NCBI RefSeq assembly: GCF_025398175.1
Contig: NZ_CP099734.1
Coordinates: 3,286,001 to 3,350,000, forward strand
DNA: 64,000 nucleotides
DNA from: Photobacterium sp. TY1-4
GTDB lineage: Bacteria > Pseudomonadota > Gammaproteobacteria > Enterobacterales > Vibrionaceae
Direction: 5' to 3'
Shown here: positions 2,622 to 4,775 of the stretch, in pieces
Numbering within the stretch: the stretch's first letter is position 1
How the letters are laid out: the number at the start of each line of letters is the position of its first letter
Position numbers and translations under genes: made by a program
The notes under the pieces: generated by a model
Told to the model about the DNA's origin: nothing
Database searches by the model: none
What the model saw: only the letters and a program-made list of their open reading frames with translations

Positions 2622-2712
2622 TGGAGCGACACACGTGGTTCCTGATCGTCAAGGAACCAAGCGTGGCCTCAACCTTAATAAGGTTTCAGCCGACCAATTA
2701 AGCGAGTGTCGC
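2622..2712 (-). pseudogene. tRNA-Gly-like unit with hairpin-substituted T-arm (variant 1)
   Basis: Read on the minus strand it keeps the GCGACAC/GTGTCGC acceptor stem and encoded CCA of the neighbouring tRNA-Gly genes, but it is 91 nt rather than 76. The T-loop is replaced by a hairpin (stem TGGTTCCT/AGGAACCA, 8 bp). The anticodon loop is TTATTAA (anticodon ATT) instead of TTGCCAA. The D-arm is altered (TCGCTTAATTGGTCGGCTGA). This is the last, most promoter-distal unit of the array. Confidence 0.7.
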
Positions 2713-2747
2713 ATTCGTCACCGTTAAGCACGATGAAGGCTGTAATT

Positions 2748-2838
2748 TGGAGCGACACACGAGGTTCCTGATCTTCAAGGAACTAGGCGTGACCTCAACC
2801 TTAATAAGGTTGCGCTCTACCAACTGAGCTAGTGTCGC
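2748..2838 (-). pseudogene. tRNA-Gly-like unit with hairpin-substituted T-arm (variant 2)
   Basis: It is a 91-nt minus-strand unit with the Gly acceptor stem and a canonical D-arm (TAGCTCAGTTGGTAGAGC). The anticodon loop is TTATTAA, and GTTCCT/AGGAAC forms a hairpin where the T-loop should be. Units V1, V2, V3 and the first tRNA-Gly start exactly 126 bases apart. Confidence 0.7.
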
Positions 2839-2873
2839 ATTCGCCACCGTTAAGCACGATGAAAGCTGTAATC

Positions 2874-2964
2874 TGGAGCGACACACGTGGTTCCTGATCT
2901 TCAAGGAACTAGGCGTGACCTCAACCTTAATAAGGTTTCAGCCGACCAACTGAGCTAGTGTCGC
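2874..2964 (-). pseudogene. tRNA-Gly-like unit with hairpin-substituted T-arm (variant 3)
   Basis: It is a 91-nt minus-strand unit with anticodon loop TTATTAA and the altered D-arm GGTCGGCTGAAACC, as in variant 1. The T-arm hairpin uses GTTCCT/AGGAAC. The acceptor stem and encoded CCA are intact. Confidence 0.7.
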
Positions 2965-2999
2965 ATTCGCCACCGTTAAGCACGATGAAAGCTATAATT

Positions 3000-3075
3000 T
3001 GGAGCGACACACGAGGCTCGAACTCGTGACCTCAACCTTGGCAAGGTTGCGCTCTACCAACTGAGCTAGTGTCGC
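3000..3075 (-). tRNA. tRNA-Gly (anticodon GCC)
   Basis: The 76-nt cloverleaf starts GCGACACTAGCTCAGTTGG, with anticodon loop TTGCCAA and encoded CCA. It differs from the other copies by one T-loop base (TTCGAGC instead of TTCGAAC). It is the most promoter-distal intact copy. Confidence 0.95.
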
Positions 3076-3077
3076 AT

Positions 3078-3153
3078 TGGTTGCGGGGCCGGATTTGAAC
3101 CGACGACCTTCGGGTTATGAGCCCGACGAGCTACCAAGCTGCTCCACCCCGCG
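3078..3153 (-). pseudogene. tRNA-fMet copy lacking one base (76 nt)
   Basis: It is identical in layout to the initiator tRNA copies at 4250, 4569 and 5114, with anticodon CAT and the CGCGGGG 5' end. It has four instead of five C at the T-stem/acceptor junction, so the 3' acceptor strand is one base short. It is either a decayed copy or a homopolymer error in the sequence. Confidence 0.75.
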
Positions 3154-3192
3154 TCCGTATTTCATCGTTAAGTACGATGACAACTATAAATT

Positions 3193-3283
3193 TGGAGCGA
3201 CACACGATGTTCCTGATCTTCAAGGAACTAGGCGTGACCTCAACCTTAATAAGGTTTCAGCCGACCAACTGAGCGAGTGTCGT
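3193..3283 (-). pseudogene. tRNA-Gly-like unit with hairpin-substituted T-arm (variant 4)
   Basis: It is a 91-nt unit with anticodon loop TTATTAA, the altered D-arm, the GTTCCT/AGGAAC hairpin in place of the T-loop, and a changed first acceptor base (A1 opposite C72). It looks more decayed than variants 2 and 6. Confidence 0.65.
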
Positions 3284-3318
3284 ATTCGTCACCGTTAAGC
3301 ACGATGAAAGCTGTAATC

Positions 3319-3394
3319 TGGAGCGACACACGAGGTTCGAACTCGTGACCTCAACCTTGGCAAGGTTGCGCTCTACCAACTGAGCTAGTGTCGC
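3319..3394 (-). tRNA. tRNA-Gly (anticodon GCC)
   Basis: The 76-nt cloverleaf is intact, with anticodon loop TTGCCAA, T-arm ACGAGTTCGAACCTCGT and encoded CCA. Confidence 0.96.
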
Positions 3395-3396
3395 AT

Positions 3397-3480
3397 TGGT
3401 TGCGGGCTCGGATTTGATCCGGGCGGCGCATCCGTCGATGGCCTGAGGGTTATGACAACCATAACACCAGACTATCTGAA
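3397..3480 (-). pseudogene. Decayed tRNA-fMet-like remnant
   Basis: On the minus strand the 3' end CCGCAACCA, a T-arm-like CGGATCAAATCCG and a CATAACCC anticodon-side segment remain, but the D-arm and acceptor 5' strand are not recognisable. It occupies the position an fMet copy would have after a tRNA-Gly unit. The left limit is approximate. Confidence 0.45.
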
Positions 3481-3485
3481 ATTGT

Positions 3486-3561
3486 TGGTTGCGGGGCCGG
3501 ATTTGAACCGACGACCTTCGGGTTATGAGCCCGACGAGCTACCAAGCTGCTCCACCCCGCG
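3486..3561 (-). pseudogene. tRNA-fMet copy lacking one base (76 nt)
   Basis: It shares the one-C shortening with the copy at 3078: four C rather than five between T-stem and acceptor. Otherwise it is a complete initiator tRNA with anticodon CAT and encoded CCA. Confidence 0.75.
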
Positions 3562-3599
3562 TCCGTATTTCATCGTTAAGCACGATGACAGCTGTAATC

Positions 3600-3692
3600 T
3601 GGAGCGACACAAGAGGTTCCTGATCTTCAAGGAACTAGGCGTGACCTCAACCTTAACAAGGTTGTAGAATCTACCAACTGAGCTAGTGTCGC
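3600..3692 (-). pseudogene. tRNA-Gly-like unit with hairpin-substituted T-arm (variant 5)
   Basis: It is 93 nt. The anticodon loop is TTGTTAA (anticodon GTT). The D-arm 3' side is replaced by GTAGATTCTACAACC. A GTTCCT/AGGAAC hairpin stands in for the T-loop, and one T-stem base is changed. The acceptor stem and CCA are intact. Confidence 0.65.
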
Positions 3693-3727
3693 ATTCGCCA
3701 CCGTTAAGCACGATGAAAGCTGTAATT

Positions 3728-3803
3728 TGGAGCGACACACGAGGTTCGAACTCGTGACCTCAACCTTGGCAAGGTTGCGCTCTACCAACTGAGCTAGTGT
3801 CGC
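3728..3803 (-). tRNA. tRNA-Gly (anticodon GCC)
   Basis: It is an intact 76-nt copy and the first (leftmost) of five units repeated with an exact 111-base period. Confidence 0.96.
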
Positions 3804-3838
3804 ATTCGTCACCGTTAAGCACGATGAAAGCTATAATT

Positions 3839-3914
3839 TGGAGCGACACACGAGGTTCGAACTCGTGACCTCAACCTTGGCAAGGTTGCGCTCTACCAAC
3901 TGAGCTAGTGTCGC
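3839..3914 (-). tRNA. tRNA-Gly (anticodon GCC)
   Basis: It is an intact 76-nt copy of the 111-base tandem series, with the same cloverleaf and encoded CCA. Confidence 0.96.
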
Positions 3915-3949
3915 ATTCGTCACCGTTAAGCACGATGAAAGCTATAATT

Positions 3950-4025
3950 TGGAGCGACACACGAGGTTCGAACTCGTGACCTCAACCTTGGCAAGGTTGC
4001 GCTCTACCAACTGAGCTAGTGTCGC
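3950..4025 (-). tRNA. tRNA-Gly (anticodon GCC)
   Basis: It is an intact 76-nt copy of the 111-base tandem series. Confidence 0.96.
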
Positions 4026-4060
4026 ATTCGTCACCGTTAAGCACGATGAAAGCTATAATT

Positions 4061-4136
4061 TGGAGCGACACACGAGGTTCGAACTCGTGACCTCAACCTT
4101 GGCAAGGTTGCGCTCTACCAACTGAGCTAGTGTCGC
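4061..4136 (-). tRNA. tRNA-Gly (anticodon GCC)
   Basis: It is an intact 76-nt copy of the 111-base tandem series. Confidence 0.96.
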
Positions 4137-4171
4137 ATTCGTCACCGTTAAGCACGATGAAAGCTATAATT

Positions 4172-4247
4172 TGGAGCGACACACGAGGTTCGAACTCGTG
4201 ACCTCAACCTTGGCAAGGTTGCGCTCTACCAACTGAGCTAGTGTCGC
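4172..4247 (-). tRNA. tRNA-Gly (anticodon GCC)
   Basis: It is an intact 76-nt copy, the last of the 111-base series, two bases from the following initiator tRNA. Confidence 0.96.
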
Positions 4248-4249
4248 AT

Positions 4250-4326
4250 TGGTTGCGGGGGCCGGATTTGAACCGACGACCTTCGGGTTATGAGCCCGAC
4301 GAGCTACCAAGCTGCTCCACCCCGCG
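4250..4326 (-). tRNA. Initiator tRNA-fMet (anticodon CAT)
   Basis: This is a full 77-nt initiator tRNA. It starts CGCGGGGTGGAGCAGCTTGG, keeps the unpaired C1-A72, has GGGCTCATAACCC with the three G-C pairs of initiator anticodon stems, and encodes CCA. Confidence 0.96.
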
Positions 4327-4364
4327 TCCGTATTTCATCGTTAAGCACGATGACAGCTGTAAAC

Positions 4365-4455
4365 TGGAGCGACACACGAGGTTCCTGATCTTCAAGGAAC
4401 TAGGCGTGACCTCAACCTTAACAAGGTTGCGCTCTACCAACTGAGCTAGTGTCGC
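4365..4455 (-). pseudogene. tRNA-Gly-like unit with hairpin-substituted T-arm (variant 6)
   Basis: It is 91 nt with a canonical acceptor stem and D-arm, anticodon loop TTGTTAA (GTT, an Asn anticodon on a Gly body) and the GTTCCT/AGGAAC hairpin in the T-arm. It is the best-preserved member of the variant family. Confidence 0.7.
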
Positions 4456-4490
4456 ATTCGTCACCGTTAAGCACGATGAAAGCTGTAATC

Positions 4491-4566
4491 TGGAGCGACA
4501 CACGAGGTTCGAACTCGTGACCTCAACCTTGGCAAGGTTGCGCTCTACCAACTGAGCTAGTGTCGC
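4491..4566 (-). tRNA. tRNA-Gly (anticodon GCC)
   Basis: It is an intact 76-nt copy with encoded CCA, two bases from the next initiator tRNA. Confidence 0.96.
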
Positions 4567-4568
4567 AT

Positions 4569-4645
4569 TGGTTGCGGGGGCCGGATTTGAACCGACGACC
4601 TTCGGGTTATGAGCCCGACGAGCTACCAAGCTGCTCCACCCCGCG
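4569..4645 (-). tRNA. Initiator tRNA-fMet (anticodon CAT)
   Basis: This is a full 77-nt copy, sequence as at 4250, with C1-A72 and encoded CCA. Confidence 0.96.
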
Positions 4646-4683
4646 TCCGTATTTCATCGTTAAGCACGATGACAGCTGTAAAC

Positions 4684-4775
4684 TGGAGCGACACACGAGG
4701 TTCCTGATCTTCAAGGAACTAGGCGTGACCTCAACCTTAACAAGGTTGTAGATCTACCAACTGAGCTAGTGTCGC
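4684..4775 (-). pseudogene. tRNA-Gly-like unit with hairpin-substituted T-arm (variant 7)
   Basis: It is 92 nt. The anticodon loop is TTGTTAA. The D-arm 3' side is changed to GTAGATCTACAACC. The GTTCCT/AGGAAC hairpin replaces the T-loop. The same GTAGATCTAC segment recurs in the chimera at 4906. Confidence 0.68.

What the first reader, a model, noticed from the sequence alone, without database searches (positions are those of the whole stretch)
2622..4775. Seven tRNA-Gly relatives with a hairpin in place of the T-arm and changed anticodons
Seven of the 24 units in the tRNA array (starts 2622, 2748, 2874, 3193, 3600, 4365, 4684) keep the Gly acceptor stem and encoded CCA but share a 22-base replacement of the T-loop. 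It folds as GTTCCT/AGGAAC with an inner TGA/TCA pair. The anticodon loop is TTATTAA (four copies) or TTGTTAA (three copies) instead of TTGCCAA. In variant 1 the hairpin stem is extended to 8 bp with changes on both sides. Three copies carry an altered D-arm. That the same change is spread over seven copies between intact tRNAs points to a duplicated, possibly retained RNA rather than independent decay. They could be non-translating tRNA-like RNAs, decoys for glycyl-tRNA synthetase, processing spacers, or simply amplified pseudogenes.
Basis: partly seen in the sequence, partly recalled or inferred. Interest (0 to 1): 0.8.

Follow-up and report, generated by a model that had tools for sequence, protein, structure and literature searches.

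The report
tRNA-Gly copies with replaced T-loop
Between and after the working glycine-tRNA genes of this bacterium sit extra glycine-tRNA copies whose T-loop is replaced by a short insert; the same kind of copy recurs in many relatives, so these look like kept, non-translating RNAs of the poorly understood 'tRNA-linked repeat' type rather than local wreckage.

Summary
The seven units are real, on the minus strand. Each is a tRNA-Gly(GCC) copy whose T-loop bases AGTTC are replaced by about 20 bases; the last 20 bases to CCA stay tRNA-like. The changed anticodon is local: 139 of 208 units keep GCC. Best filing: tRNA-linked repeat (TLR), a class described in E. coli (PMC8144298): repeats after a tRNA gene ending in that tRNA's last 18-19 bases, function mostly unknown. 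128 of 185 units carry the RNase E motif RN|WUU directly at the CCA, shuffles 14.8 on average; intact tRNA-Gly 277 of 352. The genome also holds tail copies after Pro, Asp, Ser, Phe and Asn tRNAs. Most likely: co-transcribed, 3'-processed, non-translating RNAs whose end use is unknown. Against a strong functional claim: no column covariation in the insert, 19 of 52 same-genus genomes without a match, and no expression data.

The parts
2622..2712 (-). T-loop-replaced tRNA-Gly unit, last and most diverged; anticodon triplet ATT, altered D-arm, longest insert stem
2748..2838 (-). T-loop-replaced tRNA-Gly unit; ATT, normal D-arm; called tRNA-Asn by ARAGORN
2874..2964 (-). T-loop-replaced tRNA-Gly unit; ATT, altered D-arm (GGTCGGCTGA)
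3193..3283 (-). T-loop-replaced tRNA-Gly unit; ATT, altered D-arm, first base A so the acceptor stem has 6 pairs
3600..3692 (-). T-loop-replaced tRNA-Gly unit, 93 nt; GTT, D-arm GGTAGATTCTAC, T-stem base changed (CTCTT)
4365..4455 (-). T-loop-replaced tRNA-Gly unit; GTT, normal D-arm; called tRNA-Asn by ARAGORN; query of the searches
4684..4775 (-). T-loop-replaced tRNA-Gly unit, 92 nt; GTT, D-arm GGTAGATCTAC
3000..5190 (-). array in which ten intact tRNA-Gly(GCC) and five tRNA-Met(CAT) genes alternate with the units; the tRNA-Gly genes are the source of the shared tail
2507..2522 (-). degenerate extra copy of the Gly tail (CTTGTGTGTCGCGCCA) in the trailer after the last unit
   Evidence: read by eye
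2416..2434 (-). terminator-like hairpin with T-rich tail behind the trailer, possible end of the operon
   Evidence: 2 such sites found, shuffles mean 3.1, so weak on its own

Best explanation
The units are tRNA-linked repeats (TLRs) of the tRNA-Gly/tRNA-Met operon: copies of tRNA-Gly that are transcribed with it, are cut and trimmed at the retained tRNA 3' end (RNase E just behind CCA, then trimming to CCA), and cannot serve as ordinary elongator tRNAs because the T-loop is replaced by an insert of nearly fixed length. The 3' tail acts as a processing handle; the 5' half is under weaker constraint and is often altered or lost. Shown: anatomy, recurrence, insert length, tail and RNase E motif retained, place behind tRNA-Gly, tail copies at other tRNA operons. 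Inferred: transcription, cleavage, stability, failure in translation. The use of the released RNA (spacer, regulator, sponge) is open.
For: Recurrence: 114 of 329 family genomes with exact anchors, reversed control 0; 80 of 329 with a tail-anchored pattern, 8 of 13 genera, control 0; 70 of 227 Vibrio genomes with model R1 at E<=1e-12; 71 named stretches, whose titles are Photobacterium, Vibrio, Enterovibrio, Grimontia or Aliivibrio. Insert length 21-24 in 208 of 208 extracted units, though 12-45 would have been taken; the same narrow range in the rows listed. Class-A insert 85% identical between genera, flanks 54-58%, random 20-mers 53% (53 genomes, chosen by a six-base motif, which favours conservation). 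RNase E motif RN|WUU (as given in passages of PMC5222698) at A76 in 128 of 185 units, shuffles mean 14.8, max 25; intact tRNA-Gly 277 of 352. Upstream neighbour is tRNA-Gly or another unit in 112 of 134. Tail identity stops 20 bases from the end in 12 of 12 own Gly units and 18-19 in 7 of 7 E. coli Arg and Tyr TLRs looked at.
Against: No expression data. Column covariation absent in the insert; in the CACG..CGTG context inserts fold no better than shuffles (mean z -0.21 over 119; insert alone -1.17). No match in 19 of 52 same-genus genomes, several of them in 2-4 contigs. 112 of 206 units still have at least 6 acceptor pairs, so some could still be charged. For Pro, Asp and Phe tail copies in the same genome the identity boundary is 13-30 bases, not always the T-loop. 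Gene conversion with intact tRNA-Gly could keep the tail without selection.
Confidence: 0.6

Rival explanations
1. Passive remains: one ancient T-loop-disrupted tRNA-Gly copy spread by unequal crossing-over in the arrays, with tail and anticodon arm kept alike by gene conversion from intact tRNA-Gly genes; no function.
For: The A/G polymorphism GAACC/GAGCC in the tail follows the local tRNA-Gly in several loci by eye; patchy presence; tandem [unit + terminator] blocks; no covariation.
Against: The insert has no counterpart in intact tRNA-Gly to convert from, yet keeps its length in 208 of 208 and class A keeps its sequence across genera while flanks do not.
Confidence: 0.25
2. Regulatory sRNAs or sponges released from the tRNA precursor, like 3'ETS-leuZ or RrA/B/F, with the conserved class-A stretch CCTYGAAGATCRGGA as the pairing or protein-binding part.
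For: Sequence conservation of class A; precedent for RrA/B/F binding Hfq and CsrA (PMC8144298, sections 3 and 27 part 1).
Against: Class B inserts in many Vibrio differ in sequence; in PMC8144298 the 19 TLRs in tRNA operons scored below 0.01 in its CsrA-binding prediction (passage); no target was sought here.
Confidence: 0.1
3. Non-translating glycyl-tRNAs or decoys for glycyl-tRNA synthetase.
For: 54 of 82 units with an intact-looking acceptor and D-stem keep GCC.
Against: The seven window units changed both C35 and C36, which I recall as main glycyl-tRNA synthetase identity bases; 120 of 202 units lack the intact acceptor plus D-stem.
Confidence: 0.05

Closest known systems
tRNA-linked repeats (TLRs) of E. 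coli, as described in PMC8144298 (22 genes at ten loci, citing Rudd 1999 and Egan and Landy 1978, which I did not see)
   Same: Behind or between tRNA genes of one operon; 3' end repeats the tail of the tRNA upstream; one to several per locus; function mostly unknown.
   Different: Units here keep far more of the tRNA (anticodon arm in all, acceptor and D-arm in many), have a short insert of nearly fixed length, and lie in Vibrionaceae tRNA-Gly operons.
RtT RNA (Rfam RF00391; rttR of E. coli, behind tyrV)
   Same: By eye also a tRNA 3' half with an insert in the T-loop; scores in this genome behind tRNA-Ser, 51.2 bits, cut-off 45.
   Different: The RtT model does not match the Gly units (14 loci at E<=1; window at E<=0.5); its insert is much longer.
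RrA/RrB/RrF sRNAs (5S-linked TLRs)
   Same: Read-through product behind a stable RNA, with a repeated 3' end proposed as an RNase E site (PMC8144298).
   Different: Linked to 5S rRNA, no tRNA body.
tRNA-Other pseudo-tRNA of Bacillus cereus (PMC3399842, abstract and outline seen)
   Same: tRNA-like element that does not function in translation.
   Different: Single copy by a genomic island; not a repeat of a neighbouring tRNA's tail.

Membership tests
[quoted passage not shown]
   Three of seven window units identical over 19 bases, four with one mismatch; 12 of 12 own Gly units match back to base 20 with at most two mismatches.
tRNA-linked repeat (TLR) | Lies in the tRNA or rRNA operon, behind that tRNA | tested here: met
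   Nearest upstream neighbour tRNA-Gly 82, another unit 30, tRNA-Cys 9, tRNA-Met 9, tRNA-Leu 1, none within 400 bases 3, of 134.
tRNA-linked repeat (TLR) | Transcribed and processed | not testable with these tools
   Only the RNase E motif at the CCA was tested: 128 of 185.
RtT RNA (RF00391) | Score above the family's gathering cut-off | tested here: not met
   No RF00391 match in the 14 loci (E<=1) or in window 1800-5600 (E<=0.5).
functional elongator tRNA | T-loop TTCRA and normal T-arm | tested here: not met
   T-loop AGTTC replaced in 7 of 7.
functional elongator tRNA | Charged and used on the ribosome | not testable with these tools
   Needs aminoacylation and ribosome assays.
structured RNA with a conserved hairpin in place of the T-loop | Covariation of paired columns | tested here: not met
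   Anchored column pairs in classes A and B do not exceed shuffles as a pattern (the class-A table stopped before its last offset); RNAalifold covariation term -0.14.

The most novel reading that the evidence does not exclude
TLRs are tRNA gene copies made by insertion into the T-loop: the 18-19 bp hallmark is simply what lies between the T-loop and the CCA. The near-full-length Gly units here are the early stage, E. coli TLRs the late stage after loss of the 5' half, and the process has repeated for several isoacceptors in one genome, giving a family of non-translating RNAs that use the tRNA 3' end as a processing handle.
Probability: 0.25. Interest if true: 0.75.

Novelty: new variant of a known kind. 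Interest (0 to 1): 0.5.

Why it matters
TLRs have been known for decades without a general function or origin. Units that are still recognisable tRNAs, with an insert of fixed length exactly where the TLR identity begins, make the origin testable and give a set of relatives in which function can be sought. They also inflate tRNA counts: standard software calls some of them tRNA-Asn.

Tried and rejected
Covariation of the insert: looked for with RNAalifold and anchored column pairs, not found. Single-sequence stability: in the CACG..CGTG context no better than shuffles, although whole units fold well. Phage origin: the unit pattern has 0 matches in viral contigs (exact pattern only). RtT membership: no match. 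Portable insert: E. coli Arg, E. coli Tyr and own Ser tail units share CGTTGC..GCAACG and CCCGAAGGGCG by eye, but RF00391 does not match the E. coli Arg locus at E<=0.01, so this stays a lead. E. coli leuQPV and proM loci show no tail copies; none was seen by eye behind glyVXY.

A first acceptor count that took the best of 16 offsets is worthless, since shuffles reach 6 pairs in 2014 of 4060; fixed offsets were used instead (shuffles 205 of 4040). The 204-unit count was redone by contig position: 208 places. That extraction missed at least two of the twelve own-genome units (3600 in the window and the first of the four at C1:1409841). Of 28 own-genome tail matches, four (in L234, L251, L253 Asn, L254) looked like chance and were set aside by eye. 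Class A was chosen by a motif.

Papers: PMC8144298, sections 3 and 27 (part 1 of 2) and passages; PMC5222698, passages; PMC12306157, passages; PMC3399842, outline and abstract; others only as search listings. Searches for tRNA-linked repeats found two papers; searches for RtT with stringent response and for T-loop hairpin insertions in Vibrionaceae found none; searches listed none on these units by title and abstract. The library lacks most subscription journals.

Full report
Observation. The array lies on the minus strand. ARAGORN finds ten intact tRNA-Gly(GCC) and five tRNA-Met(CAT) genes, and calls two of the seven units tRNA-Asn. The seven units are at the stated starts. Each is tRNA-Gly with AGTTC of the T-loop replaced; from GAACC (GAACA in one copy) to the CCA it is tRNA-Gly again. 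Four carry ATT and three GTT in place of GCC. Five of seven, not three, have an altered D-arm. Whole units fold with z -1.97 to -5.06 against shuffles; one intact tRNA-Gly gives -2.28.

Own genome. The unit as query finds five more Gly units, one at C1:1364420 and four in tandem at C1:1409841-1410258. In the tandem block the first part of the tRNA is missing and each unit is followed by a hairpin with a T-run.

Relatives. Of 52 genomes of the genus, 33 match a tail-anchored pattern with up to 3 mismatches and 19 do not; model R1 finds a score clearly above intact tRNA-Gly (E below 1e-12) in 32 of 52. In the family 80 of 329 match that pattern, 8 of 13 genera, and 114 of 329 match exact anchors with any insert of 12-40 bases, 5 of 13 genera; both reversed controls are 0. 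In Vibrio 70 of 227 match R1 at E<=1e-12. A scan of 84,980 species genomes gives 71 stretches, with titles of Photobacterium, Vibrio, Enterovibrio, Grimontia and Aliivibrio; viral contigs give 0.

Insert. 208 distinct places were extracted from window and L001-L158; insert length is 21, 22, 23 or 24 in 4, 78, 117 and 9, where the script would have taken 12-45. There are two sequence kinds: class A, near CCTAAGCCTTGAAGATCGGGAA, in several genera; class B, pyrimidine-rich then purine-rich, in Vibrio, with intermediates. Class A is 85% identical between genera and 87% within, against 54-58% between genera for the flanks and 53% for random 20-mers (53 genomes picked by a short motif). Covariation: 2 of 20 pairs in A1 have a double change, energy term -0.14; anchored pairs give no helix-like pattern beyond shuffles. 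Class B inserts fold better than middle-shuffled ones in 38 of 56, mean z -0.53. I therefore claim a fixed-length insert that can pair, not a proven hairpin.

5' half and anticodon. 139 of 208 units keep GCC. 112 of 206 have at least 6 acceptor pairs at the normal place, and 82 of 202 have both that and a full D-stem. In others the 5' half is unrelated sequence. The changed anticodon in the window is thus a local trait.

Place and processing. The nearest upstream neighbour is tRNA-Gly in 82, another unit in 30, tRNA-Cys in 9, tRNA-Met in 9, tRNA-Leu in 1 and none within 400 bases in 3, of 134. Downstream there is no tRNA or unit within 250 bases in 31, tRNA-Met in 28, a terminator-like site in 25, another unit in 24, tRNA-Leu in 17, tRNA-Gly in 8, tRNA-Cys in 1. 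RN|WUU, the RNase E core motif in passages of PMC5222698, begins at A76 in 128 of 185 units, shuffles mean 14.8, max 25, much as in intact tRNA-Gly, 277 of 352. In the window six of seven have it (2622 reads CCAAATCTT).

Other tRNAs. A search with tRNA tails over 42 loci plus the array finds tail copies away from intact genes for Pro, Asp, Ser and Asn besides Gly, and for Phe. In one search, after setting aside four chance-looking rows, 24 own copies remain: Gly 12, Pro 6, Asp 3, Ser 2, Phe 1. Identity to the parent stops at base 20 in all 12 Gly and both Ser copies, at 13, 17, 17, 24, 24, 24 in Pro, 22, 22, 30 in Asp and 13 in Phe; the E. coli Arg and Tyr copies stop at 18 (one) or 19 (six). 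The Asp copy with 30 has an intact T-loop, and another Asp copy has its insert between T-stem and acceptor, so the T-loop is the usual but not the only site. RtT matches behind tRNA-Ser in this genome, 51.2 bits over the cut-off of 45 at one place and lower at four.

Known class. PMC8144298 (sections 3 and 27 part 1 read) defines tRNA-linked repeats: 22 in E. coli at ten loci, 18-19 bp of the 3' end identical to the tRNA or rRNA just upstream, no known function apart from that paper's evidence for RrA/B/F; it proposes that the repeated end is an RNase E site, and reports that an earlier claim for a tyrT TLR was withdrawn. The Gly units meet the tail and place features. They differ in keeping much of the tRNA.

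Mechanism. Most likely the units are transcribed with the operon and processed at the retained tRNA end, and cannot act as normal tRNAs. The sequence steps are shown; the RNA steps are inferred. Selection is suggested by the fixed insert length and class-A conservation; passive spread with gene conversion remains possible (0.25). By eye a TATAAT at 5243-5248 (minus) precedes the array; the promoter scan reported no site there.

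Noticed in passing
window 2590-2400 minus strand; 21 distinct relatives' sequences: The trailer behind the last unit holds a conserved stretch (TACTACTGTGAAGTATTAGTC, GAAGCNATCAGCTTC, ACATCATC, then a terminator-like hairpin) that recurs in 21 distinct sequences; the consensus fold is weak (9 pairs, 4 with a double change). Possibly an unnamed trailer RNA.
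   Followed up: partly
window 2507-2522 minus strand: A degenerate further copy of the Gly tail (CTTGTGTGTCGCGCCA) inside that trailer.
   Followed up: partly
window 3396-3480 and 4916-4990 minus strand: Two broken tRNA-Met copies; the second runs into a tRNA-Gly 5' part (GTAGATCTACCAACTGAGC on the plus strand), which resembles the altered D-arm of unit 4684.
   Followed up: no
L230, L235 (Pro); L257, L259, L263 (Asp); L231 (Asn, Phe); L237, L253 (Ser), all own genome: Tail copies of other tRNAs, often as tandem [tRNA tail + terminator] blocks behind tRNA or rRNA operons.
   Followed up: partly
L257 and L259: The same hairpin letters (GCCGGAATGCCGG, with a one-base variant) sit in the T-loop of one Asp tail copy and between T-stem and acceptor in others.
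   Followed up: no
L231 (Asn copy): Seven or more AAGTCC hexamer repeats at the T-stem of the Asn tail copy.
   Followed up: no
window 2748-2838 and 4365-4455: ARAGORN names these non-canonical units tRNA-Asn, so tRNA gene counts of such genomes may be too high.
   Followed up: yes
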